Assembly (NCBI GenBank): GCA_037833965.1
Contig: AP031354.1
Location: 14,548,001 to 14,612,000 of the forward strand
DNA: 64,000 nt
Direction: 5' to 3'
Source of the DNA: Marchantia polymorpha subsp. ruderalis
Taxonomy: Eukaryota > Streptophyta > Marchantiopsida > Marchantiales > Marchantiaceae
In this document: positions 18,001-61,322 of the stretch, piece by piece
Position numbering within the stretch: position 1 is the first letter of the stretch
Layout: the number at the start of each line of letters is the position of its first letter
Translations under genes and position numbers: made by a program
The notes under the pieces: model-generated
The model's input: only the letters and a program-made list of their open reading frames with translations
Told to the model about the DNA's origin: nothing
Database searches by the model: none

Positions 18001-18570
18001 CAAATTCATTTTTTGATATTTGGATGGGGATCATGTACTTCACTTTGTTGTAGATAAGTAGATTGTTTTATTCTTTTGCAAATTTAAGCAATAACATCAT
18101 TTACAAGAGAAATATACAAAAATTGTTATTGACACTTCGCATATTTGTCAGTCCAATTTTAATCTCAAAAATCCAACAATGTGATTTTTGTGAAAAAATT
18201 CATAACTTCTACTTCAAAATATCTTACAAGTACAACATAATGCATTAGATTGACCTCCAATGTGAAGATTTATAATCTATAACATGTCAGATGTTTTTTT
18301 TAATATTTTGATAATAACAAATAATAATAATTTAAATTAGATGTAAATTATACTTGTATTCATATATATATATATATTATATAATCACATTTTTGATTAG
18401 TTAATCTAATATATAAAACACAATTTCAAACATAAAATTCCACATCTTTTCATATTTTTGGCCAATAGTACACTCATTGTATAATTCATTGTGCATAATT
18501 TCTCACCTTGTGGAATTGATATACGTTATTTGTAAAACGTCAATACTCAACACTTTTATGCCTTTGCAAC

Positions 18571-20544
18571 TTGCAGTGCTCAAGTGATATTTTTATTCTC
18601 TTTTATCATAAAAGAGAAACGTACGTGAAACACCATGTTCAACAGCATCCCACAGCCTGGAAACTGTATGATGCTGCCGATGCTGATGACAAGAAGCAAT
18701 TCTTCCTCGACAAGATGGAGCATAAGAATACCTTGCATGCCCATCTGGGCAATGCGAGCACTCCGCTGACCTTCTCGTTCGACGCCGCCATCATAGATGA
18801 TATCATTCTATCCGCGTTCTTCGACGAAGACGAGATCGACAGCAGCTCATACCGCCGTGCCGTAAAGTTGTTCCAGAAGGTTGTGGATCGTGAGTCCGAC
18901 GGCGCGTACCATTATACGTCTACAATCAACAGGGCCATGCAATTTCAACTGACAGCGCGCTTCCTCGCCATAGGTATGTCGTTCCGACAGATCGAACGTG
19001 CAGTTGATGCCACGCGGGAGGTCGCCAATGTCGCAAAGCTAGGCACGCTCAACGAGATGTTGGTTGGCGACTATGCCCGTATCCTCGTCAGCGCCGGCTT
19101 GCAGATGCTCAGCAACGTTCTGAATCGTAGCGAGACCTGGGCATTCTCGCTAGCCAACGACAGCTCGACACACTTGAGCCTGTCGTATTTCGAGCAACGA
19201 ATTCGTCTGCACGTTGCCGGCGATATCTTCAACCTGCATTTGATATCCATGCCCATGTTCGACCGGCACACCTCTGAGAACATGGCGTTGCTCGTGTTCA
19301 AGATCCTGGACGTCGTTTGTCCCAGCTGGCGCGACAAACTTCTCTGCGTCAGCACCGACGGTGCGAATACGATGACCGGCCGTCACAATGGCGTTGTCGC
19401 ACGCATTCAGCGTGAGGCCACTCATCCATTGTACCGTATTTGGTGCCTGATTCATCAGGTTGACCTGGTCTCAAAGCGCAATCTGCTCGCTCTATTCGAC
19501 GGCGATTTCCAATGCATCATCAACAAGGTCGCCACCTGCTTGCGTAAACAGCAGAAGCTGATCGACGATATGGGTGCGACCTGTCCGAAGATGACCACTC
19601 GCTGGCTGGCCTTAGGCGTCTGGACCAAATGGCAACTCGATCATCGCCTCGACCTGGAGACCTGGTTTGCGAGTCGTACCGCGCCAGGGCAGCTGCAGCT
19701 GCCCCGTTGGTGGTGGCCAATCATTGCAGGCGTGTGTGCGGTGATGACGCAGCTGAACTTTGCCATCGTCAAACTGCAGTCGAAGAATCTGCTGCTTTCG
19801 CAGCAGATCGCCGAGATCGAACGCGTCGTCAGTATCATCTGCATCAAGTGCGAGGTTGAGGTCGTGAATCCGCTCGTCGAAGGAGAAGTTGCAGCCGACG
19901 AGACGCAATCGGCAATCTGTGGTAAGTGGTCGATCACTCATCGCAATGTCGAGAAGTTCTTGCTTGACCAGGGTTCGTTCGTCAAGCATGTCTTGGATGC
20001 CATGACCGTCATTCAGCGTGCTGAGGTGTTCAGTGAGATGGGTACTTTCGTTGTCGGCATGATCGATGGCATCTTACAACTGGTCGCTTCTCGGGACGCT
20101 GACAACCTACCATCGGAGGAGGAGATTCCGCCGGTGCTGCCCCACCAGCTTATCGCGATTCGACCAGCCGCATTCGCTGCACTCGCCAACAAACACGGCG
20201 GACGACTTGCTCAGCTGGGCGAGAACGTCATGGATCGCATCGAACAAGATCACCGTGAACTCATCACTGCATTCGACAACGAGCCGTCGCTTCACGACGC
20301 GCTTGGTCGCTGCAACAACGATACGTCATTTCGTGAAGGTTGGGCGGTCGTCGAGGGTCGTTTCCGTGGTCTGCGTGACTTCTGCGGTGGCATCGCCACC
20401 ATCTTTCCAAACACTGCTTCGGTGGAGTCCAGCTTCTCAATTCTCGGCTGGGAGAAGGATGCAAACCGCATGTCCCTCACCGATCTGGCGTTGGAAGGCT
20501 GCATGCAGGCGCGGCAGTTTGATCTCCTATCAAAACTAGCCTAA
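18571..20544 (+). CDS. hAT-like BED zinc-finger transposase
   Basis: An uninterrupted, intronless ORF of 657 codons, visibly GC-richer than the AT-rich DNA on both sides. Near the N-terminus YVKHHVQQHPTAWKLYD resembles the histidine half of a BED zinc finger; the CxxC half is not clear, so the true start may lie upstream or the 5' end may be lost. In the middle, STDGANTM followed by RIWCLIHQVDL resembles the hAT catalytic-core region, including the C-x2-H signature of the family. The C-terminus (TASVESSFSILGWEKDANRMS, residues about 610-630) matches the hAT dimerisation domain, where a SVE/S..FS pattern is typical. The protein would bind transposon ends and catalyse cut-and-paste transposition in the nucleus. 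It lies between decayed elements, which suggests a younger insertion. A domesticated gene is possible but there is no direct sign of it. Confidence 0.75.
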   Translation: MQCSSDIFILFYHKRETYVKHHVQQHPTAWKLYDAADADDKKQFFLDKMEHKNTLHAHLGNASTPLTFSFDAAIIDDIILSAFFDEDEIDSSSYRRAVKLFQKVVDRESDGAYHYTSTINRAMQFQLTARFLAIGMSFRQIERAVDATREVANVAKLGTLNEMLVGDYARILVSAGLQMLSNVLNRSETWAFSLANDSSTHLSLSYFEQRIRLHVAGDIFNLHLISMPMFDRHTSENMALLVFKILDVVCPSWRDKLLCVSTDGANTMTGRHNGVVARIQREATHPLYRIWCLIHQVDLVSKRNLLALFDGDFQCIINKVATCLRKQQKLIDDMGATCPKMTTRWLALGVWTKWQLDHRLDLETWFASRTAPGQLQLPRWWWPIIAGVCAVMTQLNFAIVKLQSKNLLLSQQIAEIERVVSIICIKCEVEVVNPLVEGEVAADETQSAICGKWSITHRNVEKFLLDQGSFVKHVLDAMTVIQRAEVFSEMGTFVVGMIDGILQLVASRDADNLPSEEEIPPVLPHQLIAIRPAAFAALANKHGGRLAQLGENVMDRIEQDHRELITAFDNEPSLHDALGRCNNDTSFREGWAVVEGRFRGLRDFCGGIATIFPNTASVESSFSILGWEKDANRMSLTDLALEGCMQARQFDLLSKLA

Positions 20545-25329: not shown

Positions 25330-25343
25330 TTTGTGAGGTGGGC

Positions 25344-25353
25344 TTTATATAGG
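25344..25353 (+). promoter_or_regulatory. TATA-like box, possible LTR promoter
   Basis: 'tttatatagg' lies about 200 bases before a small ORF and 1.4 kb before gag, in a position suited to a U3 promoter of the retrotransposon. No LTR pair exists in the window to confirm it. Confidence 0.3.
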
Positions 25354-25550
25354 TCTTAAAGTTCCTTTCAGTTTTATTGTGGTGAATATACATTAGTGAT
25401 TACTTAAAGTAAAAAGTTTCCTTATGCTCATGTAAAACTTTGTGATAGTTTATAGTTAAACTATTTTTAGTTTCCACTTTAGTTATTTGGTTTACAGATA
25501 CTCTGTGAACGATCTTTGTACATAGTGGAGTTTTGACTTGTGAAGAGACC

Positions 25551-25909
25551 ATGCCGCTTGGAGACAAAGTGGGAGACAGTTTACCAGAAATTCAGACAGT
25601 GGAGGTTGTCAGCAGCGAGGAACGTGATCAGGAGTAGGAGGTGACGGTGCAGCCTCAAGTAGAAGTGAATATGGTAAACACAGTTGTGGTAGAAGAAAAA
25701 AATTATGGGTTAGATTGGTACGAGGCACTAGCCGTAGAAAAACTTCTAGAGGAATCCGGCCTAGAGTATAGGATATGTGAGGATGAGTTATTCGACCTTC
25801 CAAAGAATATTGCTGATCATTTGAGAGATGTTCAGTATATTCAAGACTGTCTATCAGAAGAAATTCTTGTATTAGAGAAATTTCTTGATAGTCTTAAAAA
25901 GGATTGATA
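25551..25909 (+). pseudogene. Small acidic ORF upstream of gag
   Basis: From ATG at 25551 a frame of about 118 codons runs to a stop at 25908, broken once by TAG at 25635. The second part (25641-25907, 88 codons) is intact and acidic, with a predicted helical, leucine- and glutamate-rich stretch (YEALAVEKLLEESGLEYRI; later LSEEILVLEKFLDSLKKD). I recognise no family. It lies between the TATA-like box and gag, so it may be an accessory ORF in the LTR or leader of the retrotransposon, or a remnant of an unrelated gene. Confidence 0.4.
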
Positions 25910-26776
25910 GTGAATACCTGTAGAAAAGAGGTACTGAAGGGATCGGGAGTTTGCACCCGGTCTCACTGCCTCTAAACTTGATGTTTTGAAAGCATTGTAA
26001 ATATATATATGACGTAGTCAATATATTGAGCTTTCAGTGTGTAGTGTGTTTGTTGAGAGGAAGTGTGACTCCTGTGTGAAGGAGAAAAAAAAAAGAAAAA
26101 AAAGTTTTCAAACAATTTTTGTTTGCAATTTGATGGAAGAGGGCATCGTAGGCGCTGGAGGCCCAAGTTGATGGCGGGCGATGGAAATCAAATCGGGATC
26201 GCGAAGCGATGCGATGTACCGTGTGTGTTGTCTTGTTTTGTGTTGTGTTTCTTTTAAATTGGAGAGTCGTTGCTAGCTGTTTGCTTGCGTTTGGATCCTC
26301 TCCAGTTTTGCTTCTTGGTGCGCGCCCGTGTAGGGGTTACGTTGATTTCTGGAGTAGTTTTACTCCTGTGTGCTGTCGATAGGGGGCTTGACTTGATCAC
26401 CGGCCAGCCTATCTATGTTTCTCTCACAGTGAGACTAGAGTGATGACTAGTAGGCCGTGAAAGTCTTCTTGCTGTGATGATAGGTTAGATTGCCCATACC
26501 TCTTAATTAGTAGGGCTAGAGTAGCTCAGTGCGGCACGACGTCAGGTGCACATAGGGTTATTGGGTGGAGATCTGGCAGTGGTGCAAATTGAGGTTTCGT
26601 CATCACGGAAAGTCTAGTGGTCCTGTTGAGGACCGCGGTGGATTTACGCGGAGTGAGTTGAGGTATCGGCTACCTTCACCTACTCGCCAATTGTTGCAGA
26701 GGAGGACTAGAGTGTTGCAGACACAGAGTCTTTGGTGGTGATATCGTCAAGTGTTCCAACCCCATTGATTTGGGAC

Positions 26777-28640
26777 ATGGACGGGATGTACGGGGCCGTG
26801 AAGGGCCCTCGACGTTACTCTGGTGCAGTGGGCACCATCGAGCTCGATGATTTTATTTAGGAGTTCGACACGTGGTGTGATATGCAGTTTCTGCGTAACC
26901 CACGTTGTTAACACCCTTCTTTGCATGGAAGGGGTAATTTTAGCATTTGGAGGGGCCTCCCATGGACGATTATCATGAGTTTGGGAAAGATTATGCTGCA
27001 GAGATTGATGCATGGAGACGTCATTGGTCTCCGAACTACTTATCCATTACCCAGGGTGATGTGAGTACCAATGGAGGTGCAAATATTGGCATTGGTGGAG
27101 GTGCGAGTAGTAGCATTAGCGAGAGTACCAGTGGAGTAGTTGGCGCAATTGGTACCAGTACCAGCAGCGGTACTGTTAGCATTGCTGGTGGCAGCACGAG
27201 GGGAGATGCTAGTGGCGTACCTTCGTTTAGCCCCATTCCTGAGTTCTTCCAGAGGTTGAGGAAAAACTATCAGGGGGTGAAGACGGAGAAGTTGAGGAGT
27301 CTCCAAGGATTCAAGCGGAAGACTGGTGAGAGTTTTCGTGAGGCATACACTCGTATGCGACGGCTTATCTCCGTTACTCACGGTGTGACTGAGGCACAGG
27401 CTGTCCAGTATTGGTATCAGTTTCTGGATAGAGAGTTGCGGAGGAGAGTTCATGATGCTACTCTCATGAGCGACTCATCATCCACATTAGCCCATGTTTC
27501 TACTCTTTCTTAGAAGATTGAGCTGAAAATGGTGGAGGAGAGGGTGATGAAGTCTACATTTGCGAGGGACACGACCACTACTTCGCGTATCCCACACAAT
27601 ACATCACAGTCTCGCCCCATGGGCGGTGGTGGTGGGAGTCGTGGAGTTCATACACGACATCCTTCAGGTCACATACAGCCTAGTGCGCGACCACCACTAC
27701 CTTCATTTTCTATACAGCCAAAGAGACCGTCATGTTGGACATGCAAATGTGGTCATATGAAGAAGGATCGTTCCCAGGAGAGAGAGGAACAAACTTCACA
27801 TGCTAGGCCACAGTCGACACATGAGACCTCTGATCATTGTCATCGATCGGATCACTCTCGAGAGCGTTGTTTTGACCTTCATCTTGAGTTGAGATCTGGA
27901 GGCAGAGGTCGTGGCGGTGATGCTCCACGAGGCCGAGGTGGTAGAAGTACCGGTGCCATTGAGCGTACCGCAGCAAGTGCTACTTTTGCCACAGAGAACG
28001 CTATGGCTGCTCAGATTGAGCAGAGGCTTGATGCTATGACTGGTCTGAAGGCGAGCACTTTTACATCTTACGAGAGAGAGGATTTCTCCTATTTGGCCAG
28101 TACGGCACAGGTTGAGGCATCAATTGCGGTGACCAGAGGTGGTGCTCGCGCTTTAGAGCCATGTGGTGCGACTGTGGAGTTGGACCCTCAGAGGGATGAG
28201 GATGGACGTCAGTCTAGACTTCCCCAGCCCTTTTTATTGTTGGAGATGGCTAGCAGTTTATCAATGAGACCTGCACCACCTAGTGACACTGGAGTGAGAA
28301 CTGAGGTTCTTACATCATCTGTTGTGGACGAAGAGGTGCCATCTAGTGCAGTGATGCGGATGGCCACTTCAGTCTTGCGATCTCCATTGTTTTCAGCCAC
28401 GGAGTTGATGGACTCTGATATTGATTTGGCTCGAGTATTTTGGGTAGCAGGCACGTCGTGTGAGCGTGAGAGAGTCACTGCTACGAGTGTCGACATACGT
28501 GAGGATGCGGTTGAGGACTCATCCGCAACGTCTACATTGTTCGAGGAGACGACTTGGCAGGCGGCAGCGGCAAGGATGGAGTCCTTACCAGCTCGACCAG
28601 CCATTGATCGTGAGAGGATTGTCCCTGGTGTGTGTATGGT
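26777..28640 (+). pseudogene. Retrotransposon gag with two degenerate zinc knuckles
   Basis: Capsid-like polyprotein part of the Ty3/gypsy element. Reading starts at ATG 26777 in one frame, meets TAG at 26858 and TAA at 26909, and resumes in another frame from about 26947. The gag core is at 27,240-27,510 (EFFQRLRKNYQGVKTEKLRS, then ESFREAYTRMRRL). TAG at 27511 breaks the frame, which then continues to 29,151. Two CCHC knuckles are recognisable but damaged: CWTCKCGHMKKDR (about 27,733; last Cys is Arg, spacing one residue short) and SDHCHRSDHSRERC (about 27,829; first Cys is Ser). A Gly/Arg-rich patch follows (27,895-27,950). The central part (28,000-28,640) has no clear domain. The protein would have packaged element RNA. 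Confidence 0.7.
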
Positions 28641-29154
28641 GGACAACCGGGGTGGATTATTTCACTTAGTGAGCTCTACCGGACAAGTGTATGTTCCTGC
28701 CAGATTTTTGCTGACTTCTGGTGCACAACCCTTGATGTTGGACAAGACTGCATGCATTAGTTTGGGTATTCGGAGGTCAGAGTTGGAACCTTGCCCATTC
28801 CAGATCCAAACATCCCTTCTTGTTGGCGCCAGCGATAGGTCTTACTTTATGACCAGGGAGAGCATAGCGGTGCAGTTGAGGCATGATCACCCTCATGACA
28901 GCTCGCAGTTTGGAGTTCGTGCGGTGGTTACATCAGCAGAGTCATATGATGTGGTTGTTGGTGGAGCTGTGTTATATCCGATGGGTTTTTCGATGGATTA
29001 TTGGACGGAGACAGCTGCCTATCGTCCTGGTTGGCAGTCTGGCGATGGACGTATGAGCCAGCTACTAGTGAAATTTATTTCTCGAGATCAACCTCTTGGA
29101 TCTTCATCTGCGGTCTTTGCATCTGTTGCGGGTTTCAGCGGAGTGCTTACCTAG
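28641..29154 (+). pseudogene. Retroviral-type aspartic protease of the DNMT retrotransposon
   Basis: Same frame as gag, directly downstream. The segment VYVPARFLLTSGAQPLMLDK (about 28,690-28,750) has the layout of the protease active-site loop, where the family has D-[ST]-G. Here the position before Ser-Gly-Ala is Thr, so the catalytic Asp is missing. The following ISLGIRRSEL, the hydrophobic strand and YDVVVGGAVLYPMGF (family: D.ILG...L...G) support the assignment. The frame ends at TAG 29152, but related sequence continues in the same frame. The domain would have cleaved the Gag-Pol polyprotein. Confidence 0.6.
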
Positions 29155-29307
29155 CCTGATGACTTGTTAGAGGAGAACATGTCCGCCGACGATACCTCAA
29201 TCTACAAGGATGTGGAGGAGGTTGTGAGTTTTGCAGCGGTGGTGCCTTCACCCTTAGATGCTCCACTTTGGAGTTTTTGTCAGACACTATAGCTGGAGGC
29301 TGATAGG

Positions 29308-30472
29308 TTGGTGAAGAAGGTTTGGAGTGAAGCCTTTTTACCAGTAGAGGCAGAGAGAGATTCAGGTGACCGGTTAGTATGTGGTTCTAGCACGCTATCA
29401 CCATTGGTTACTACATCTATTGCATGGGAGTATTCCTCAGAGGGCGTTTGTTTGCTGGATCTTTTTGGTGGGATCAGCACAGGTTTGGCTACAATGTTGC
29501 ATTCAGGTGTTCTCGTTCGGAGATACTTGTATGTGGAGAAGGACAAGACTACACGTCGAGTCTCTTCACGGCATGTTGCACAGTTGATGCAGCGTCTTCC
29601 TTCGTTATTGCCGCGATCAAGTGTTCGAGGTTATCAGAATGCGTTGCCTTCAGACATTTTGTTGCTGGGGGCGCCGGACCTTGACAGCGTTGGTCATATT
29701 GATAGGGTGATTGCGGGCTGGCCATGTCAGGGACACACGCGCTGGACATGGGACAGGGTTGCATGATCCCAGATCTCGGATGTTTTGGGAGATGATGCGA
29801 GTGTTACATCATCTCAAGGTGCAGCAGACACGTTCTCCAACATACATTCTGGAGAACGTACCATTGTGGGATGACACTCGGGCTCAGTTGATGGCGAGTG
29901 TCAATCATGTCCGAGCATGGATTGGATCAGCAGTATTGTTGGTTGCTGCGAGGGTTGGATCACGTGCTCATCGTGCACGTTTATGGTGGATTAAACTTTT
30001 GCCACGAGAGATACTGCGTCATGCTTATGATTCTGTGTAGTGTGATCCTACACTCACCGTTGACAGTATCTTGAATGTTTCCCGACACTCTCAGGTAGTG
30101 ATAGTAGTTGACAGGTCACCTATGGCGTTGGGGAACCGCGTAGGTCAGCCTCAGATGACTTTACCTACATTTGTCAGTTATCCGACATCACATGCATATC
30201 GTGATGATGGACCTGGACTACTGTGGTACAATACAGTACATCAGTTGGTGGAGCCCAATGCTAATGAAAGAGAGCGTGCGATGGAATTTATGACTTGTGT
30301 AACCGAAGTTGCTACAGTTTCAGAGGCTTCGCGTCGTCAGGTTTTGGGTCAAGCTATGGACTTGAACTGTTTGATGTGGATTGTGAGCTTGGGTTTGGCG
30401 GAGCAACGCCGTTTGCGCGTTGATTTGGTGGTTAGTCACCACTTGTTAGCTCATTGCCTACCAAGACGGTAA
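29308..30472 (+). pseudogene. C5-cytosine DNA methyltransferase domain in retrotransposon
   Basis: Transfers a methyl group from S-adenosylmethionine to cytosine C5. Motifs occur in the ordinary, unpermuted order: I, LLDLFGGISTGL (29,449); II, YLYVEKD (29,528); IV, GWPCQGHTR with the catalytic Cys codon at 29725; a DPRSRMFWEM block (29,774); VI, ENVP (29,852); VIII, GSRAHRARLWW (29,957); then a stretch of suitable size for target recognition; finally ERERAMEF (30,267) and EASRRQVLGQAMDLNC (30,328), like motifs IX-X. The order excludes DRM-type enzymes, and the HRAR and RR..LG blocks resemble the DNMT3 group. The frame shifts after PCQG (net +1, about 29,735) and returns to the gag/RT frame by 30,472; TAG at 30038 adds a nonsense codon. 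Upstream, TAG at 29290 separates it from protease. This copy is inactive, but its ancestor probably encoded a working enzyme. Confidence 0.85.
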
Positions 30473-30474
30473 TG

Positions 30475-32190
30475 GCAATGGCTGGGGGCAACAGGCGAGA
30501 TATTTGTCATCCTTGGAGTTCATGGGACGTGATGAAAGAACTTGCTAGAGTTGCAGCCCATGCAGTTGGAGAGGATTCTCATGTGGAGGTGGCTACGAAG
30601 TAGGGTATGGAGAACCCTTCTTTGCAAGATGTAGCGTAGCAACCATTGACAGTGTCGCCTCTCCATAGTGTGTCTATGGAGGAGGAATGGGAGCCATTGA
30701 TTGGTTCCCAGATCACAGGAGGAGAGAGGCGACAATTGACACAATTTTTACGAGACTATATGAGTTGTTTTGCCTTCAGTATGAAGGAGGTGGGTGCGTT
30801 GATTGGACCTGTTATACGGATAGAATTGGCTAGTGATACGCCAATCTTCCGTCGTCCTTATCGATATAGTGAGATAAAGAGGGATTTGATTCGAAGTAGG
30901 ACGTTGGACCTACTGGAGGATGGAGTAGTGGAGTTATCGCATGGTGAGTATGCGTCAGCCACTGTCATGCCGGTGAAGAAGGATGTACATGGCAACTACA
31001 CGGATAGGCGCATGTGTGAAGACTACCATCCTATCAATCGGCAGACGAAGTCTGATAAGTATGCCATGCCTACACTTGAGGAGATCTTCGATATGGTGGG
31101 ACATGCGAGGATTTTTAGTACTTTGGATCTTCAGGCAAGATACCATCAACTGCCAATTCGGGAGGAGTACAAGATCAAGACAACGTTTTGAGGCGTCAAC
31201 TCCCACGGCAAGGATTGTTTGTATTAGTGACGATTCTTACCCTTTGGGTTGAAGAATGCACTTGCTGAGTTTCAGAGGGTTATGGACAGAATCCTAGCGG
31301 AGCTAGATTTTGTTAGATGTTACATTGATGATATCTTGATGTTTAGTGACACTGTGGAGCAACACCAGATTCATTTGCAGGTTGTGTTTGAGCGGTTGAG
31401 GGCTCATGGTTTGAGGTTACATCCTGGGAAATGTAAGTTCTTCCATGAGAAGGTTGAGTACTTGGATCATGTGATATACCCAGGTGGTTTAGGAGTTCAG
31501 CAAGCAAAGGTGAAGGCTATTGCACGCATCTCTTGTCCCACTGATGTGAATAGAGTTCGTGCATTCATGGGTTTGGCGAACTACTACACGAGGTATGTGA
31601 AGGGATTGAGTGCTATAGCTAAGCCTTTGAACCAGTTGCTGAAGTCAGATCAGGAGTGGCAATAGGAAGATGAGCAGGAAAGAACTTTTGTTGAGCTCAA
31701 GGCCAGGTTGGTGGCCGCTCCCATCTTGACGAGACCTATCAGAGGTCGTCTATACCAATTGCACACTAATTGAAGTATGTTGAGACTTGGAGCGGTGTTG
31801 ACGCAGCGTGATGATGAGGGCAAGGAGTTTGTGATGGCCTACGCTAGTCGTTCGAACAATGCAGCGGAGTCGCTGTATAGTTTGTACGAGGGAGAGTGCT
31901 TGGCAGCGGTGTGGGCTGTGGCACACTTCAGATGTTACTTGTTTGGTACGCAGTTCGTCCTTGTTACTGATCATCAGTCGCTCAAGTGGTTGATGGAGTC
32001 CGACAAGCTCACAGGGAAGATTGCACGGTGGGCTCTCATCTTACAAGAGTACAACTTTCAAGTAGTGCATAGACTTGGAGTTGCGAACCTGGATGCCGAT
32101 GGTTTGAGTCGGAACTCATGCACTAGCCAGGAGGATGACACTGGAGCTAGATGTCATGATGAGGTTGACGAGGAGATGGTGCATGGTTGA
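30475..32190 (+). pseudogene. Reverse transcriptase and RNase H of the DNMT retrotransposon
   Basis: RT copies element RNA into DNA; RNase H removes the template. The linker from DNMT (30,475-30,645) carries TAG at 30601 and 30637. RT motifs: PIFRRPYRYSEIK (30,841), the first catalytic Asp in FSTLDLQARYHQLPI (31,112), the FLPFGLKNA block (31,234), the YIDDILMFS active site intact at 31321-31347, and GLANYYTRYVKGLS (31,570). RNase H: the first Asp of the family TD motif is Asn here (HTN, then TGA at 31771), but the Glu of YEGECLAAVWA (31,885) and Asp of VTDHQSLKWL (31,964) are kept. Nonsense codons sit at 31189 (TGA), 31225 (TAG), 31228 (TGA), 31663 (TAG), 31771 (TGA) and 32188 (TGA), all in one frame, so decay is by substitution here. 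Confidence 0.9.
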
Positions 32191-32205
32191 CATGCATCTG
32201 CCTTC

Positions 32206-33140
32206 ATGTGTTGGTTACGTGAAAACTCCAACAGAGAGGATCATCTGACATCTTACTCTAGGCAGAGAATAGATGGTCGATCTTCAGATCCTGAAGTTGA
32301 GGATCGTGGTGTGGATCAGCGTGATGTTCACGATGATGCATCGATGCACGATTTGTTGGAGTTGCTACGGACCAGCATGGTGCCAAGCACCGTGGGTGCC
32401 AAGGAGCGAGATCGTGTTCTCCAACGGGCGAAGAGATACCGATTGGAGGGATCACATGTTCTCCGAGTCTGGAAGGACGGTAGGGTACGAGTAGTATCAC
32501 ATCCAGCTCATAGAACACGCATTGTGAAGCATGCTCATGAGGAGTTGGGACATTTTGGAGTGAAGCGTACATACAGCTTACTCCTTGGTCAGTATTGGTG
32601 GCGTGGTATGCATACTCAAGTACAACAATTGGTATCACGTTGCATAGTTTGTGATCGGGTGAGGGCATCGTTCAATGCTCCGACACCAGAGTTACATCCA
32701 TTACCCATCATGGGATTGGGTTACCGTTGGAGTTTGGACTTTGCTAGACCACTACCTTTGACTATACGACATCATCGGTATGTGTTGGTCATGGTAGAGC
32801 ATTTCTCCAAGTGGATTGAGTTGGTGGCATTACCTGACAAGGCAAGTGAGTGAGTAGCATACGCTTTCCTTGACAAGGTGCTTAGTCACTATGGTGCACC
32901 AGCTGTGGTGTTGACCGATCAGGGGACGGAGTTTCAGGTCTTGTGTGACAAGACGCTGATTGATCACCGGATCATATCGCGAGATCATCTAGAGGCGAAT
33001 GGTTTAGCTGAACGTGTTGTACAGACGGTGAAGAGGGTGTTGCGCAAGCATGGCCTCCAAAAAGGTTATCTTGGGGACTGGGATATTCAGTTACCATGGT
33101 TGGCCATGGTATATCGATTCAGTCAGCAAAGCTTCAATCA
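32206..33140 (+). pseudogene. Integrase of the DNMT retrotransposon, truncated
   Basis: Inserts element DNA into the genome. The HHCC zinc domain is complete (HAHEELGHFGVKRTY, then CIVCDRVRA; 32,530-32,670). In the catalytic core, the first Asp is in WSLDFARPL (32,731), the second in LTDQGTEFQ (32,914), the Glu in ANGLAERVVQ (32,995). Only about 30 residues separate the last two, against 35 in the family, so roughly five residues are lost right after TEFQ. TGA at 32851 breaks the frame. Homology ends after LPWLAMVYRFSQQ (about 33,130), where AT-rich unrelated sequence begins: the C-terminal domain and any chromodomain are absent. Confidence 0.85.
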
Positions 33141-35429: not shown

Positions 35430-36718
35430 CTATGCTAAATCCGCAATAAAGTCAAAAGGTCCCAAAGGATCCGAAAATAAAGCAAAACAAAGATCTTCTA
35501 ATTCGATGAAATCATAAGCTTTTTCCCAACCTTTTGCGCACTTCTCACATACGCTCGACAAGGCGCTAAAAGTGGTACTCTCCATGAAATCCCTCTTGTG
35601 CTTCCGGCAAATGACGGTGTTACACTTTGCGTACTTGGGCGACTGCGCCCAGCAGCTGAAACAAAGATACCGCTGGCAGCAGGCCCTCTCAAACTGTTCG
35701 TCATCCAGAGGCAAGCAAGTACCGCACCCACTACAACTCGGCAAACAAATGAAACACCCCTCGCAAGCTTTGATGGTGTCAATCCTTGCTGCATTCTCAC
35801 AACTTTTCCTCGTACAGTCGAACACAACCGTCGCATAATCAGATTTGCACAAGTGACAAATCTCAACATCCATAGCTCGATCGTCATCAATGGTACTTGA
35901 GGACAAGTAAACAGGCCAAGTTTTTGGTGATTGGTAAACAGTCCAAGTGGTCGTTAAATGGTGAACGTTTCCTCTCAAAATCATATCTCTCTGAGTAAAC
36001 TCGTTCTGCTCCTGGATTTTAAATTTTCCAAGGATTTGCAACTGTTTGATACCGCTCATCCCTTTCGAACGACTCATTGCACAGTGCTGCTCCACCGTAA
36101 GCACAAGGGCATCAATATTGAGCTGTATACATCCTGGGACCTCCAGCTGCAAGAATTTGTAGAAGGAGTAAGCTACTATGGAAACCATGTAAGAAACAAA
36201 GTTGATGGTAGAAACTGCAGATAGAAGAAAATGAAGTTTCGGCAGGAGATGTTGCTAACCTTCTCAAGCTGGGGACAGAGTGATAGCGCATTGGACAATC
36301 CTTCATCAGTGATCCTTAAACATGTGATCAGTCTCATACTCTTCAGTAATCCACCTGCCCTCTTGACAAGGGTCATAAGAATGTCATCTGTCAGGGCCCT
36401 GTTTAGAGGGCGTTCAACCCCTAACTTCCTCCACACCAGAACATCATTCACTCGGATGCGCATTTGCTTGCTTACCCTCTCGAGCGTGAGAAGAGATTTC
36501 AAATCTGCGTATGGTAAGATGGAGAGAAACCCGTCGGGAGTGCCATCGGAGTGTTCAGTTCAGAGAGCAGCCTCCTCTTCCTGCCTTTCCTGCAACATCG
36601 AGTTGGAGCAAGATGGTCGATGTGAATTTTCTGTTAACTCTTGCTCCAATTCCGCGGAAGAACTTTCACAAGACAGACCTGACAGTTTCTCAGTCAAAGC
36701 TTTCTCTACTGTCCCCAT
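35430..36718 (-). pseudogene. F-box plus cysteine-rich gene, copy 1, with nonsense codon
   Basis: Near-identical to copy 2 at 39,688-40,979. Exon 1 is 36718-36260 and exon 2 is 36146-35430, joined in phase over a 113-base intron. Codon 53 is TGA (36562-36560) where copy 2 has TGT (Cys), so the frame ends before the F-box. A downstream Met (36502, codon 73) could at best give a product lacking the start of the F-box. The rest of the frame is open: F-box/LRR-like block (LSNALSLCPQLEKV, end of exon 1) and the C-terminal cysteine clusters (CHLCK, CEGCFICLPSCSGCGTC, CFSCW, CEKCAKG). Either a recent pseudogene or an N-terminally shortened protein. Substitutions relative to copy 2 are scattered. Confidence 0.75.
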
Positions 36719-39687: not shown

Positions 39688-40979
39688 TTACAGGTCCTGA
39701 AAAAAATTCGAAATAACGTCAAAAGGTCCCCAAGGATCCGAAAATAAAGCAAAACAAAGATCTTCTAATTCGATGAATTCGTAAGTTTCTCTCCCACCTT
39801 TTGCGCACCTCTCACATACCCCCGACAAGGCGCTAAGAGTGGTCCTCTCCATGAAATCCTTCTTGTGCCGCCCGCAAATGGCGGTGTTACATTTTGCGCA
39901 CTTGGGCGACTGTGCCCAGCAGCTGAAACAAAGATACCGCCGGCAGCAGGCCCTCTCAAACTCCTTGTCATAAGGCACGCAAGTACCGCACGCACTACAA
40001 CTCGGCAAACAAATGAAACACCCCTCGCAAGCTTTGATGGTGTCAATCCTTGCTGCATTCTCACAACTTTTCCTCATACAGTCGAACACAACCTGCGCAT
40101 AATTATGTTTGCACAAGTGACAAATCTCAACATCCATAGCTCGATCGTCATCAATGGTACTTGAGGACAGGTAAACAGGCCAAGTCGTCGGTGATTGGTA
40201 AAGAGTCCAAGTGGTCTTTAAATGGAGTCCGTTTGCTCTCAACATCATATCTCTCTGAGTAAACTCGTTCTGCTCCTCGATTTTAAATTTTCCAAGGATT
40301 TGCAACTGTTTGATACCGCTCATCCCTTTCGAACGACTCACTGCACAGTGCTGCTCCACCGTATGCACAAGGGCATCAATATTGAGCTGTATACATCCTG
40401 GGACCTCCAGCTGCAAGAATTTGTAGGAGTAAGCTACTATGGAAACCATGTAAGAAACAAAGTTGATAGTAGAAACTGCAGATAGAAGAAAATGAAGTTT
40501 CGGCAGGAGATGTTGCTAACCTTCTCAAGCTGGGGACAGAGTGATAGCGCATTGGACAGTCCTTCATCAGTGATCCTTAAACATGTGACTAGTCTCATAC
40601 TCTTCAGTAATCCACCTGCCCTCTTGACAAGGGTCATAAGAATGTCATCTGTCAGGGCCCTGTTTAGAGGGCGTTCAACCCCTAACTTCCTCCACACCAG
40701 AACATCATTCACTCGGCTGCGCATTTGCTTGCTTACCCTCTCGAGCGTGAGAAGAGATTTCAAATCTGCGTATGGTAAGATGGAGGGAAACCCGTCGGGA
40801 GTGCCATCGGAGTGTTCAGTACAGAGAGCAGCCTCCTCTTCCTGCCTTTCCTGCAACATCGAGTTGGAGCAAGATGGTCGATGTGAATTTTCTGTTAACT
40901 CTTGCTCCAATTCCGCGGAAGAACTTTCACAAGACAGACCTGACAGCTTCTCAGTCAAAGCTTTCTCTACTGTCCCCAT
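39688..40979 (-). CDS. F-box plus cysteine-rich protein, copy 2
   Basis: Exon 1 is 40979-40521 (153 codons), exon 2 is 40410-39688, with a 110-base GT-AG intron in phase 0; the product is 393 aa. Exon 1 holds a Glu/Ser-rich N-terminus, then an F-box-like segment (FPSILPYADLKSLLTLERVSKQMR, residues about 63-86, followed by VWRKLGVERPL) and one leucine-rich-repeat-like motif (LRITDEGLSNALSLCPQL). The F-box would recruit SKP1 in an SCF ubiquitin ligase. Exon 2 ends in cysteine clusters (CHLCK; CEGCFICLPSCSACGTC; CCRRYLCFSCW; CAKCNTAIC; CERCAKG), probably zinc-binding and a candidate substrate-binding part. I know no named family with exactly this pairing. Copy 1 (35,430-36,718) is its broken duplicate. 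Confidence 0.75.
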
Positions 40980-41808
40980 GTTTACTACCCTAGCAATTTC
41001 TCACGATCTCAGTTCGCTGACGACCCCGCACTGCCATACTGAGTCTTTGATTATTGGCAGCGTCGTAACGAGAATTCACGAGAATTCATCACAAAAATAT
41101 CATGAATACTGAGCAATCTCTTCTGCGGATAGTTTTCCTCTAGCTCCAATTCCAGCTTCTAGTCCTGAACATGCTCCAGTAATAAAAGAATGTCGTTCTA
41201 GAACCTACCCTGAAACCTCTTCTTAACTGCATCTGATTCCCACTAGAGTAACGTTGAACTCAGAAACCGATATATTCCGTTTGGTGATTCATTAGTCTAA
41301 TCCACGTGCATGCGTGCGAACGAAGCTTTCAAGATTAAACTACTTAGTTTGTTCTCATCTTTTGCAAATCCTACACAATCGTCCAAGAGCATGAGCGCCT
41401 TCTAGATTGTCTCCTGGAATTATGGTAAATAGATCAACCCCGTGGATCGAAAAGGTCAAAAAGCTGAAAAATACGATACAAACAATCCAACTCTAACCTT
41501 TATAAAGTATTCTGTCACTCTTGCCTCTATCAATGCGGTCGCACATTAGAAACAATCGATGGTGGAGGAATGGGGAATCTAATTTTATACGTTGAAAAAT
41601 CATTAGATTGAAAATAAAAATTTGAGACAAAAATAATAAATCAAAAACTATATAAAAAACAATCGATGACGACGAAATAACACAGCCAGTTCCAATTCGT
41701 ATCAGTACCTCAAGTTGCTGACCATAGACATAGCGCACCCTGACCATAGACATAGCACATCACAGACCCATCGCAACTTTCTCAGCCGGTGAGTCTGACT
41801 TGGCAGCA
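39690..41808. repeat. Segmental duplication, unit 2
   Basis: Direct counterpart of 35,430-37,490, with small indels (for example a deletion near 41,190, and an added repeat of 'gaccatagacatagc' near 41,740). It ends at about 41,808, after which AT-rich unrelated DNA begins. Confidence 0.9.
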
Positions 41809-56468: not shown

Positions 56469-59400
56469 TCACACATAGTAAACCATACCCACCTGCAAGC
56501 AGCTCTCGTGTGGGACATTGTACATCACCTTGCTTTCTCTGCAAGTTCTCCTCAAAAATGCATAGATGTAGTTGATGGCAATCCTCTTCAGAAGTCCAGA
56601 TCCCGTCCGCGCCCTGACCATCGTGTTGCCTAGCAAGTACACCACCCCAATCTCCTTGTTCTTCAGGAAGGTCTCCAACTCGCTCACGCTTTCCTCACCA
56701 ATATCATCATCTGACTCAATCACTGCCGGATGCAAAGGCCGACCTCCTCTCTGCCTTGGTGCACTGATGCCATCAGGAGAATCTGGAGGGCTGTCTTCTT
56801 CCTGAAAGTGAACTGTCCTTCCAGGAAGTTGCGAATGGTCGCTCTCCATTGTTGTCGTGCGCGCACTGGATGTGGTTAACGAGGACACCGAGGTCCAGTC
56901 TCCTGGATAGTTGGTCTGAGTGGATGCTACCAGGGCTTCATATTTTATATAATGAGTCAGCTTTTCAATCAAAGTCTCTTCAAACTTATCGTCTTTCTTG
57001 TGTAGATCCTGGTAACCGTACCTTGCAGCACATCGGAACATGGAAAAGCTGGTAGGACCGATGCGCTTGATGTGGAAACGTTCCTCGTTAGGTACAGTAT
57101 TGACTGGCAAGTACTTGATGCATACGAAAACCAAAGTGGAATGGATGGCAGGCAGGTTGGTGATGAAGTGAGAGAATAGGGGAGGAACTCCATGGGCCAA
57201 ATCTGTGTATACAAGCCCGATTCCGGGCACTCTGACGAGACCTAGTCCTGTGCCAAGCCCTAGTACCCAGCCCACTGACACTTTGTTCTGTATCTCGAAC
57301 TCATACCGCTTAATCGTCCCGTAGTGCCACACGTACATCACTATGAGCATCGTCGCAGCTATGGCCAGAGGCACCCAACCGCCTTGCTGAACCTTGAACA
57401 ACACAGCAGAATAGTAAACCGCCTCAACCGTACCAAAAACTCCTAGGAATAACGCAGCAACCCACAAATTCTTGTGCCAAACCATTATCATGACCAGGAA
57501 CATGAGGACCGTCGTGGATAGCATCACTCCTACAACGGCGATGCCTGTACACACATTTCCAAGATTTGTCAGCTTCAAAACGATAAGATTGGTTCCATAA
57601 AGCTAACATGAACTCCGGAAGATGCATAATTTTCATAGAGTTGAGCTTGGTTTGTGACGGAATGGGAATGGAAACGAGGGCACAAAAGAGGGAACAGAAG
57701 CTGATTTACATACCATAAGCGTTTCCGATCTGCTCTGTGTCCTTGAAACCAGCAGTAATTATGAGACAAAGAATCATGACTATCCAGTTGATCTCAGGAA
57801 TGTACACTTGACCCATCAATTTGTGGGACGTGTGCACAATCTTTACTCGGGGGAAGCATCCGAGAGCCATGGATTGTTTCACAATCGAGAATGTAGCAGA
57901 AATGATGGCCTGACTTGCAATCGATGCAGATATAGTTGCCAAAACAAACATCGGCCAGTACAGAGGATCTGCATATAAAAAAACCAATTTCAATTAACTT
58001 AAATTTCAGCCTTTTGATCGGACCAGATGCAGCAAAACTTGAAACGCTGGAAAATACATAGATCAGTGAGAGATGTGGTCCGTACGTGGAAGCGACTTGT
58101 AAAACGTGTCTTTCACGTCTTCGGGGTGATGCATGAGGTACGCAGCTTGACCCAAATAAGACAGTAACAAGCAGGGGAAAACGAGAACACTAAACGCGAT
58201 CTGGAAACACCCCACAACACTTGTATGAGCACATGCTTTGTTTCTTTCTCAGCACGATTCGTAAATTCGTCAAGGTGGAGAGCAGTATTAAAATTGCGAG
58301 CAACTTTGAAGCAAAATGAGCATGCCAGGGTAGAGGGGCAGGGTAGCGACTATTCATCGCTCACCTGGATTGCTTTCGCGGTATAATGTTCGCTCACCTG
58401 AATGGATTGTGCTGAAAAGTGTCCCAAATCAGCATACAAGGCTTCCGTCCCTGCGATGATAACGAAAGAGGTTAAAGAATTCCTCGCTCATTCGATGCAT
58501 ACGTACTTCTGCGATGCATGAATTGAAGGAAATTTCATCTCACAAAAGGCAAAACATAGGTTGCCTCTTAAGAATTTTGAGGCGAATTTGACATATCCGA
58601 CTAGATTCCATCTCACCTGTGATGCACAATACAATTCCTCCAAGTGATGACCATGCTTCTTTCTTATTCTTTATTAGGTATCTGATGCCATAATGAGGTG
58701 AGAAAGCTTGGAAAACAGAATGATGATGCTGGTAGATATTGTAGATGCCGATAGACCCATTAGCCAAGAACCAGATCATAACGATCGGAGCAAAAAGAAA
58801 CCCAATCTGGCCCGTCCCGAATCTTTGCATGCTGAAGAGCAGCACTAAAATGGCCAGAGAAATTAAAACCACCACAGCTGCAATAGAAAGACATTCGGGT
58901 GAGCCTTAAATTCAACAAATTTAACTTCAACCTCAAAGATACCCATGCGGAGAACAGATTTCCAGCTTTTACAACCTCGAAATGACATTATAGTCAAAAA
59001 GGAAAAAGAAAAATTTTCTGCTAGAAAATCAGATGGCAAAGCGGTTGACAAGGAAGCCCTCCGTTGCTTACTTTGATTCAATTTAGATGATGCCACCTTA
59101 ATTCCATCGACCGCTGACAAAACTGCAGACGGAGGAAAATTTGTCAGAGAGAGCATAATGGGCCAAACTGTTACGAAAAACTTTGGAATGATCAGACTTC
59201 GTGGATCGCTTGAATAAATTGACGATTGCCCAAAGGTTGGACGGATGAAAATCGAAGTATAAAAACATGGGAATTGACTCTCTGAACGAGGATATTTTTG
59301 CGACAGGAGGGGACATATGACGACCATTGATTGATTGCATGTCCTGCTCGTCAGAAAGCAAAAAGAGCAGGAGAAACGATGAGAAATACAACATAATGTA

Positions 59401-61322
59401 AGAACAACCAGAGCATTCACCTGATATTGCCGGCGTTAAGATGCCGTCTCCTATAACCATACACGTGCTTAGCAAAACAAGCATCAAAAGAAGGAACTGA
59501 AGAAACGAGCTCTTCTCCAGCCGTGTTTTCATGCTCTCCGCACGAGAATTTGGCAGTGGTAGTGTTTTGATATAAGTTGTAAGCTCTTCGTCCGTTGGAT
59601 GACGGCTAGGAAGGGAACTGATGTTGCAGTATCGGCACAGTAATGAATATAGAGCGAATGTGCCTCCTGCAATGAAACGAATGCGATAGGACTCTGTAAA
59701 TAGCCAGAAATCTAACTTCTGTCATCGACGTCGATCCTTCAAACAGCGCGAAAAGGGGGACCGAGTCGCCAAGCTCAATAGCCAAACATCGACAGGGAAT
59801 TTCATCGTCAATGACCCAAGCACAAAGCTTTGATGTGGCTAGAGAGCCAGTCAGACGCATGACGTGGTTCAGATAAGAAACGCACCTTCACCATTGTCAT
59901 CGGCTCTCAGCACAATGAACATGTACTTGATGAGAGGTATAAGAGTGAGAGTAAAAATGATGAGACTGAGTGCCCCTAAAACTTCGTGTTCATGCTCTTC
60001 CCTCAGCCCACTCGGGAACGTGCTGCGGAAGACATAAAGCGGTGATGTCCCCAAATCACCGTAAACGATACCCAAACTTTGGAATGCCAGGCGTAGGAGC
60101 GCAGCCAATGGTACTGCCTGTATCACACATCAACACCAAACAATTTTCAGATTTCCAATCCACAATCTATCAAGATTCCGCTTCCGTTATGGGCTCGAGC
60201 TACATCGTTTTCCCTGCGCATCAGTCCACAAGTTCCAAGAACGCCCAGCCTCCGTAGAACCTTCGATACAAACTTACAACATACCAGGGCCCCCGAATTT
60301 CAAAGCCCGATGCAGAATTCTTATCTCAAAGTCAAATGTGGACAACTAGACCGGACAAATTCCCAGACAGAAGGCATATCTCGTACAAAAGGTGGTCCTC
60401 CGCACAAGATTCTCTGATACTACGAGACTGAGGAGAAGAGCTTTGGCTGGAGGTTTGGATTGATTTCGTGCGTAGATGGAATTACATTCTTTAAGAGAGA
60501 ATCCTTCGTGCTGTGCTTGACGAGGGCGGCAGCAATTATTGGGAGCTTTTCTGCGCTGAGGGTGTTCGTAAAACATCGCGAATGAAGTACGGCTACGAGA
60601 CAGTGCAGAAGCCAGCTAACACGTTATTTATTCTATTTGCACAAAACTGCCATACCGCGCGGAGGTTGACAAATTTCCTCATCATTATGGGCATATTCAG
60701 CCTTCAACCCATTTCAGCTTTAGATGATAAGAAGGATCCAAATTACTTCTAGCGCTGAACCAGCTGACACCCCTGAGAACGACCGTAGACCTGGTGCAGC
60801 AATTCTAGTTACGGGTAATTTCCTGAGCATCGAGACAATTGACTTTCTTATGGACATGGCAAACATTATCGAGAGCAACCTCTCACAAGGTCCACAGCAC
60901 GATTCTAATCCTAGAGAGTGATCATAAAATCACGGGCAAATCTTACAAGCTGATTTTAGAAAAGAGAATGTCAACGACGAATTCAGCCACTCCATAAACT
61001 TCTAACGCCAAGAGGATTCGGTGACAAACATCGGACCCGCAAACCAGCGAGTGAATCGAGAGGCGGGCCGAAGCGACATACAGACATGAACTCGAGATGA
61101 TACGTGCACTCTCACCTTTTTGCCATCATTCATGATCCGAATCCGACCGGACTCGGGTCCGAGTGGCTGGTCCATTCGCTGGTCTATCGCCCACATTTTC
61201 CCCCGATCTTCCGTGCCCATGCCCATCTCCTCATCTCTTTTCATCGCCGCCTCCATACTCATATTCATATTTACGTGTCTTTCAATTTGTCGTAAACTCA
61301 CTTCTCTCGAGCGGTCGATCAC
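56469..61322 (-). CDS. KUP/HAK/KT potassium transporter
   Basis: Multi-span plasma-membrane or tonoplast protein for K+ uptake. Nine exons join in phase: 61322-61116, 60117-59886, 59666-59421, 59122-59072, 58877-58617, 58450-58398, 58200-58086, 57968-57714, 57544-56469. Product about 831 aa from the first ATG, usual for the family; a later Met cannot be excluded. Exon 1 carries [20 protein letters not shown], like the N-terminus of the KUP5/KUP7 group. Family signatures follow: [20 protein letters not shown] (exon 2), [25 protein letters not shown] (exon 3), [10 protein letters not shown] (exon 5), [13 protein letters not shown] (exon 6), [11 protein letters not shown] and [13 protein letters not shown] (exon 8), [19 protein letters not shown] and [12 protein letters not shown] (exon 9). 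The long hydrophilic C-terminus has a Ser/Thr/Asp-rich linker and ends in a conserved [18 protein letters not shown] block. All introns are GT-AG. No damage seen. Confidence 0.95.
60118..61115 (-). other. First intron of the KUP/HAK gene
   Basis: About 1.0 kb between the N-terminal exon (donor after ...DGKK at 61116) and exon 2 (acceptor ATACAG before AVPLAALL at 60117). Nothing else recognised in it. Confidence 0.7.

What the first reader, a model, noticed from the sequence alone, without database searches (positions are those of the whole stretch)
29308..30472. DNA methyltransferase captured inside a Ty3/gypsy retrotransposon
Seen: SAM-binding LLDLFGG, catalytic GWPCQG, ENVP, GSRAHRARLWW and terminal RRQVLG motifs occur in order, flanked on the same strand by gag/protease and by RT, RNase H and integrase, with the gag/RT reading frame shared on both sides. 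Known: Ty3/gypsy elements do not normally encode a methyltransferase; capture has been reported in dinoflagellate and charophyte retrotransposons. Inference: this element family may methylate its own or host DNA, either as camouflage or to alter silencing, and its presence beside bryophyte-like genes would widen the host range of this system.
Basis: partly seen in the sequence, partly recalled or inferred. Interest (0 to 1): 0.93.

Follow-up and report, generated by a model that had tools for sequence, protein, structure and literature searches.

The report
DNA-methylating Gypsy retrotransposons in liverworts
A jumping-gene family with many copies in a liverwort genome carries its own DNA-methylating enzyme, encoded together with the particle's shell protein just before what looks like a leaky stop signal, so these elements may mark their own DNA as they copy themselves.

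Summary
Window 29308-30472 is a decayed C5-cytosine methyltransferase (MTase) inside a decayed, truncated Ty3/Gypsy element. It is not a private insertion. The genome (liverwort, most likely Marchantia polymorpha) has 40 scored DNA-level places, window included, and 123 scored MTase places, 24 of them in open frames of 1351-1365 codons. Undecayed copies read gag - protease - MTase - in-frame UAG CAA CCA - RT - RNase H - integrase - PHD finger, between split direct repeats A...B-A-B. The stop is TAG in 30 of 30 loci examined and fits the UAG-CARYYA leaky-stop motif in 29. A relative with 47-48% MTase identity keeps the same order and motif. The enzyme is DNMT3-like by sequence, predicted fold and tree. 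It groups with 25 related enzymes, away from the host's own DNMT3. Purifying selection is strong (dN/dS 0.14). DNMT3-bearing Gypsy elements with such repeats are known from Klebsormidium. New here, as far as my searches go: land-plant hosts, the gag-side position before a conserved leaky stop, the PHD finger, two alternative MTase positions, and captured spliced host transcripts. Self-methylation of cDNA is inferred.

The parts
25343..26898 (+). 5' leader of the decayed element, homologous to the leader of copy L035; the A terminal repeat is missing
   Evidence: blastn to L035 88.7% identity over 25343-27942; repeats A and B give no match in the window
26899..28650 (+). gag region with remains of CCHC zinc knuckles (the first at 27733-27768) and an RGG-rich stretch, interrupted by stops and frame changes
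   Evidence: tblastn of L031 ORF1; PF03732 E=0.004, below its cut-off; motif place
28650..29290 (+). retroviral-type aspartic protease region and spacer; LLTSGAQ at 28708-28728 where the undecayed copy L031 reads LLDSGAQ
   Evidence: in the relative P0153 an Asp_protease_2 match lies at the like place, upstream of the MTase
29308..30472 (+). DNMT3-like C5-cytosine methyltransferase domain, pseudogene, frame change near 29740
29452..29472 (+). motif I (SAM binding) LLDLFGG
29716..29739 (+). motif IV (catalytic Cys) GWPCQGHT
   Evidence: for GWPCQG, for HT; codons intact in 29 of 37 loci by pattern
29852..29863 (+). motif VI ENVP
29957..29989 (+). motif VIII region GSRAHRARLWW
   Evidence: aligned to DNMT3A SAAHRARYFW
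30332..30349 (+). motif X region RRQVLG
30637..30645 (+). TAG CAA CCA: the ORF1 stop in a type I readthrough context, still present in the dead copy
   Evidence: TAGCAACCA in 29 of 30 loci, TAGCAACAA in 1
30640..31665 (+). reverse transcriptase (broken), CYIDDI at 31318-31335
   Evidence: PF00078 E=2e-19 on 31231-31665
31774..32190 (+). RNase H
   Evidence: PF17917 E=1.9e-31
32191..33130 (+). integrase: H2C2 zinc domain and truncated rve core; the copy ends about here, so the PHD finger and 3' repeats are missing
   Evidence: PF17921 E=8.5e-17; rve pieces below cut-off; DNA homology to L032/L036 ends at 33128

Best explanation
Shown: this is one dead copy of a large, recently active Ty3/Gypsy-type family in a liverwort. 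The undecayed members encode gag-protease-DNMT3-like methyltransferase, then a conserved UAG in a tobamovirus-type leaky context (UAG-CARYYA), then RT-RNase H-integrase-PHD finger, between split direct repeats A...B-A-B. Inferred: the enzyme is made at Gag level and packed with Gag in the particle, while RT and integrase arise only by readthrough of the UAG. In the particle or pre-integration complex it methylates cytosines of the newly made double-stranded cDNA de novo. The PHD finger steers the integrase to chromatin with a particular H3 tail state, probably unmodified H3K4. The new copy would thus arrive already marked, to be maintained or silenced by host MET1-type activity. My own weights: family, architecture and selection 0.95; UAG readthrough 0.85; active DNA methyltransferase 0.75; own cDNA as main substrate 0.5; PHD targeting 0.5.
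Against: No expression, methylome or activity data were available. The window copy shows little CpG-specific decay (C-to-T at CpG 54 of 511, elsewhere 188 of 2250), so it gives no footprint of CpG self-methylation. The catalytic motif is PCQ, not the PCN of human DNMT3A; host DNMT3 in the same genome reads PCQD. Readthrough is inferred from context alone. One relative (P0158) has MTase and RT in one open frame without the stop, and in others the MTase lies between RNase H and integrase, so the gag-side position is not universal. In one of six copies open on both sides of the stop, the motif IV Gly is changed. The residues that set PHD specificity were not tested.
Confidence: 0.6

Rival explanations
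1. The element's enzyme acts mainly on the host genome in trans, changing methylation or silencing to the family's benefit (or as a by-product of its copy number), not on its own cDNA.
For: Copy number is high. PMC5890265 (abstract and passages) raises an effect on the host epigenome.
Against: The enzyme is encoded in one frame with Gag-protease and would be expected in particles (inference); PMC5890265 reports that Klebsormidium, with such elements, keeps a plant-like methylome (passage). No host data here.
Confidence: 0.15
2. The domain is kept for nucleic-acid or SAM binding, packaging or a structural role, not for DNA methylation.
For: Its position next to Gag would suit a packaging role; the motif IV codons are altered in 8 of 37 loci by pattern, though those loci include decayed copies.
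Against: In an alignment of 55 rows down to 33% identity, the Pro-Cys-Gln of motif IV, the Glu-Asn of motif VI and the Ala-His..Arg of motif VIII are kept in 90% or more, and dN/dS is 0.144.
Confidence: 0.12
3. The enzyme methylates RNA (element RNA or tRNA primer) in the particle.
For: Some C5 enzymes of this superfamily (DNMT2, DNMT6) are associated with RNA (PMC12344493, passage); PMC5890265 discusses RNA methylation for the LINE-type elements (passage).
Against: Sequence, fold and tree place it with DNMT3/DRM. tRNA-methyltransferase matches are far weaker: best E=0.0018 against 2.3e-10 for DNMT3A.
Confidence: 0.08
4. The methyltransferase is a separate insertion or host pseudogene that happened to land in this one element.
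For: The window copy alone would allow it, as the domain is in broken frames.
Against: 40 scored places, window included, carry the segment; one ORF runs through gag, protease and MTase in undecayed copies; the arrangement recurs at 47-48% identity in L055; 8 of 11 re-examined RT places also have it.
Confidence: 0.01

Closest known systems
KnitGypsy-Dnmt3 of Klebsormidium nitens (PMC5890265, first part and passages read)
   Same: Gypsy-type coding domains, an intronless divergent DNMT3, repeats in the order A-coding-B-A-B, purifying selection on the enzyme.
   Different: There the enzyme is reported in the Pol ORF; here it lies with gag-protease before a UAG. 'PHD' does not occur in the paper's main text. 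The host here is a land plant with many copies; the paper says K. nitens has fewer copies of such elements. Direct sequence kinship not tested.
SymbioDIRS-Dnmt3 and SymbioLINE-Dnmt of Symbiodinium (PMC5890265)
   Same: Retrotransposon-encoded C5 methyltransferase under purifying selection, many copies.
   Different: DIRS (tyrosine recombinase) or LINE backbone; here a DDE integrase.
DNMT3 / DRM de novo methyltransferases
   Same: Motif order of DNMT3 (not rearranged as in DRM), best sequence and fold matches.
   Different: No ADD, PWWP or other host domain found in ORF1; separate clade in a tree with few host rows; PCQ motif.
UAG-CARYYA (type I) readthrough of tobamoviruses (PMC5382211, passages)
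   Same: UAG followed by CAACCA or CAATCA, both fitting CARYYA.
   Different: Found here in a Gypsy-type element, where it splits gag-protease-MTase from RT-integrase.

Membership tests
Ty3/Gypsy (Metaviridae-like) | RT, RNase H, integrase in that order, gag with zinc knuckles, aspartic protease upstream | tested here: met
   order RT-RNase H-integrase by Pfam; gag weak by Pfam; zinc knuckles and DSGA protease motif by eye
Ty3/Gypsy (Metaviridae-like) | two simple terminal LTRs | tested here: not met
   split direct repeats A (293-294 nt) ... B (119 nt) - A - B in 5 of 6 copies examined, in one of them with a shorter second B
KnitGypsy-Dnmt3 kind | DNMT3 domain inside Gypsy coding region | tested here: met
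KnitGypsy-Dnmt3 kind | A-coding-B-A-B repeats | tested here: met
KnitGypsy-Dnmt3 kind | DNMT in the Pol polyprotein ORF | tested here: not met
   MTase is in the gag-protease ORF, RT behind an in-frame TAG
KnitGypsy-Dnmt3 kind | sequence kinship of RT and enzyme with the K. nitens elements | not testable with these tools
DNMT3 family | best sequence and fold match DNMT3, motif order I-IV-VI-VIII-X | tested here: met
DNMT3 family | falls inside the DNMT3 clade | tested here: inconclusive
   sister to DNMT3+DRM in a tree with only 4 such rows; the host group has 85/90 support
DNMT3 family | C5 DNA methylation activity | not testable with these tools
   no assay
DIRS | tyrosine recombinase instead of DDE integrase | tested here: not met
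   rve and Integrase_H2C2 found, no PF00589 listed
Chromovirus | chromodomain at the integrase C-terminus | tested here: not met
   PHD finger at the C-terminus, no chromodomain listed
Type I stop-codon readthrough | UAG followed by CARYYA | tested here: met
   29 of 30 loci TAGCAACCA, 1 of 30 TAGCAACAA, which does not fit; TAGCAATCA in L055
Type I stop-codon readthrough | measured readthrough | not testable with these tools
   no assay

The most novel reading that the evidence does not exclude
A single ancient capture of a DNMT3 founded a retroelement clade spread through liverworts, Sphagnum and unknown metagenome hosts (probably green algae). Its members carry a methyltransferase and, where the end of Pol was seen, a PHD finger, and the methyltransferase has moved between two positions in the polyprotein (protease-MTase-RT or RNase H-MTase-integrase). 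In the land-plant branch the enzyme is made at Gag level before a conserved leaky UAG and methylates the element's own cDNA as a regular replication step, so copies enter PHD-selected chromatin already methylated.
Probability: 0.35. Interest if true: 0.88.

Novelty: new variant of a known kind. Interest (0 to 1): 0.72.

Why it matters
Retrotransposons are normally the targets of DNA methylation. A family that spreads while carrying its own de novo-type methyltransferase, encoded with its shell protein, makes the question 'why would a transposon methylate DNA?' directly testable in Marchantia, a tractable model plant with many open copies and published methylomes (PMC5784723, passages). [quoted passage not shown] for bryophytes that needs amending. 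It also bears on how methylome surveys count host DNMTs: of the 136 methyltransferase places found here, 3 were identified as host genes and nearly all others look like the element.

Tried and rejected
Chance motifs or a lone inserted pseudogene: rejected. Bacterial or contaminant methyltransferase: rejected as origin; DNA search of the plasmid collection gave no match, and relatives in IMG/VR and Streptomyces are 24-43% identical over parts; the 6 of those 12 loci put into the tree fall outside the clade. Capture from the host's own DNMT3 or DRM: not supported, those fall outside the 100/99 clade. DIRS element: the repeats look like it, the integrase does not. I first read the 294-nt repeat as a plain LTR and corrected this. 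A CpG-decay footprint in the window copy was weak: 54/511 against 188/2250. Two rows labelled type I in the tree (P0161, P0184) had unknown architecture when labelled; the end of P0184 resembles, by eye, the pre-integrase region of type II, and P0161 stays unknown. My first pN/pS windows were about 100 nt off the MTase borders; one search repeats them with exact borders. No match of the leader ORF of L035 to Pfam. Literature: in the library held, searches listed no paper that I could see reporting methyltransferase-bearing retrotransposons in bryophytes; most listed papers were not opened, and supplements and subscription papers were not searched. PMC12344493 (passages) calls the retrotransposons of streptophytes and dinoflagellates Copia and DIRS where PMC5890265 says Gypsy for K. 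nitens. Papers seen: PMC5890265 first part and passages; PMC12344493, PMC6338049, PMC5382211, PMC10952607 and PMC5784723 passages only; others search listing only.

Full report
OBSERVATION. The first two are in frame 1 and the other three in frame 2. Flanking pieces on the same strand match gag (weakly), RVT_1, RT_RNaseH, Integrase_H2C2 and, below cut-off, rve. Read against an undecayed copy, ORF1 is recognisable at 26899-30636 in frames 1, 2 and 1, with more frame changes near the gag start, and the RT-to-integrase frame is recognisable up to 33159. DNA homology to the copies compared starts at 25343 and ends at 33128, and neither terminal repeat is in the window. The window copy is therefore a dead, truncated member, about 10% diverged from the others.

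HOST. The window lies in a genome of 241 Mb in 9 contigs. The best named proteins are from Marchantia polymorpha (for example P0154, 90% identity; P0179, 96% over 62% of the query), with M. paleacea, Riccia sorocarpa, Calypogeia fissa, Sphagnum troendelagicum and S. tenellum among named relatives. I infer Marchantia polymorpha; the genome handle itself is unnamed.

THE FAMILY. The MTase segment has 40 scored DNA matches of 421 candidates, window included, all over at least 1154 of 1165 bases. PF00145 scores at 123 of 290 candidates, 24 of them in open frames of 1351-1365 codons (counted by eye from the table). The two calls together give 136 distinct places, of which 3 are host genes by motif order and tree: one linear DNMT3 (L045) and two rearranged DRM (L043, L044). 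Of the first 100 of 150 scored RT places (2899 candidates), 72 have an MTase place listed upstream within 6 kb. Both lists are capped, so I fetched about 2.1 kb of upstream DNA of 10 of the remaining 28 and already held an eleventh. Eight carry the MTase across the span looked at, one (L075) has a ragged internal deletion, and two are truncated (L077 before the MTase, L040 with only its last bases). No clean MTase-free version was seen.

ARCHITECTURE. In copies L031/L032, L033/L034 and L035/L036 one frame of 1355-1361 codons carries Gag with two zinc knuckles and an RGG-rich stretch, a DSGA aspartic protease and the MTase (knuckles and protease by eye in L031). It ends at TAG. In the same frame follow RT, RNase H, integrase and a PHD finger (Pfam run on two of the three copies). 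The nine bases from the stop are TAGCAACCA in 29 of 30 loci and TAGCAACAA in 1; the 30 are the best DNA matches, not a random draw. The pattern UAG-CARYYA is the type I readthrough signal of tobamoviruses (PMC5382211, passages). The terminal repeats are split direct repeats: A (293-294 nt) at the 5' end and B-A-B (B 119 nt) at the 3' end, in 5 of 6 copies examined, one of them (L032) with only 85 nt of the second B; the sixth (L039/L040) is rearranged. The copy L037/L038 has A joined straight into gag, so its leader and gag start are lost. The A repeats of one copy are 98.0-99.7% identical in 5 pairs, so insertions are recent; no clock was applied.

A DEEP RELATIVE. L055 (contig CADCWO010000201.1, 9285 nt, filed in a cyanobacterial MAG but by its domains a eukaryotic-type element) encodes gag-protease-MTase (47-48% identity), then TAG CAA TCA, then RT-RNase H-integrase-PHD. 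Its ends overlap as in a circular assembly. Searching the liverwort genome with its RT-RNase H piece returned 150 scored of 3003 candidates, at 63-67% identity; of the first 30 rows, 27 lie within 700 nt of an RT place of this family. Order and leaky-stop context therefore persist over a long divergence.

TWO POSITIONS OF THE ENZYME. Of 10 metagenome proteins scanned, 8 show by Pfam the MTase after RNase H or before the integrase (type II); P0170 shows it after RNase H by its profile hit and sequence; in the tenth, P0158, MTase and RT share one frame without the stop. P0160, P0174 and P0177 end with a PHD finger. P0153 and P0155 show protease-MTase (type I). In the tree the 9 type II enzymes form a clade at 97/93 that also includes P0161 (architecture unknown) and P0184, inside a clade of all 26 element-type enzymes at 100/99. 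Human DNMT3A, host DNMT3 and host DRM form the neighbouring group at 85/90; six bacterial and viral enzymes are the outgroup at 99/98. Retroelement domains were seen directly around 14 of the 26; the other rows are fragments or were not checked. One capture followed by relocation is the simplest reading; two captures from one lineage are not excluded. Only four eukaryotic non-transposon rows were available, and no RT tree was made.

MECHANISM. From this anatomy I infer that Gag-protease-MTase is the major product and Gag-to-PHD the readthrough product, so the methyltransferase is present at Gag level in particles where cDNA is made. A DNMT3-type enzyme acting on unmethylated double-stranded DNA would then methylate the new cDNA; PMC5890265 (abstract) reports de novo CG methylation by retrotransposon DNMTs. 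The PHD finger resembles fingers of CHD4, KMT2, PHF12, PHF21A, DPF and ATXR5, several of which read unmodified H3K4 (recalled), and may direct integration. Not shown: activity, readthrough, packaging, substrate, targeting. The window copy has no strong CpG decay, which neither supports nor excludes this.

CAPTURED HOST TRANSCRIPTS. The leader between A and gag differs between copies. The leader of L035 holds pieces of at least three other genomic loci, with introns removed at 7 of 7 junctions tested (6 as CT..AC, that is antisense, 1 as GT..AG); a further gap was left out by my distance rule. The one junction tested in the leader of L031 had no canonical border. Whether these loci are annotated genes was not checked. 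Each leader is found at three places, over at least 2556 of 2751 and 2600 of 2601 bases, the query's own place included, so captured pieces were copied on. This fits template switching during strand synthesis near the 5' repeat (inference).

NOVELTY. DNMT3-bearing Gypsy elements with such repeats are known in K. nitens (PMC5890265). I found no report for land plants in the library searched. The new points are hosts, gag-side placement before a deeply conserved leaky stop, the PHD finger, the two positions, and transcript capture. Hence: new variant of a known kind.

Noticed in passing
L035 1200-3950, L031 2100-4700; other loci L067, L068, L069, L070: The leader between the A repeat and gag contains spliced fragments of other genomic loci, mostly antisense: 7 of 8 junctions tested have canonical intron borders removed. 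Each of the two leaders is found at 3 places, its own included.
   Followed up: partly
L055; protein P0068: Eukaryotic-type retroelement sequence is filed under bacterial MAGs (Synechococcales AVDCRST_MAG81; P0068 named as Candidatus Obscuribacterales): probable algal or plant contamination in bins.
   Followed up: partly
P0177: A type II relative has a weak Tudor-like match (PF21743, below cut-off) after its PHD finger.
   Followed up: no
L039, L040 (G000 C2 about 20.75 Mb): A 3.76-kb stretch is present as a near-identical (99.9%) inverted pair around the element.
   Followed up: no
window 35430-36559 and 39688-41112: A tandemly duplicated gene region about 4.3 kb apart; the first copy has an F-box-like N-terminal piece (PF12937, E=5e-5, below cut-off).
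   Followed up: no
window 18520-20544: A 674-codon open frame that looks like a hAT-type transposase by eye (recalled features); Pfam gives no match at E 0.01.
   Followed up: no
window 56469-59721 (- strand): Exons of a HAK/KUP-type potassium transporter (PF02705, PF22776).
   Followed up: no
window 26176-31378 against L031: Transitions from C/G are more frequent than from A/T (8-11% against 3.5%) but only slightly enriched at CpG.
   Followed up: partly
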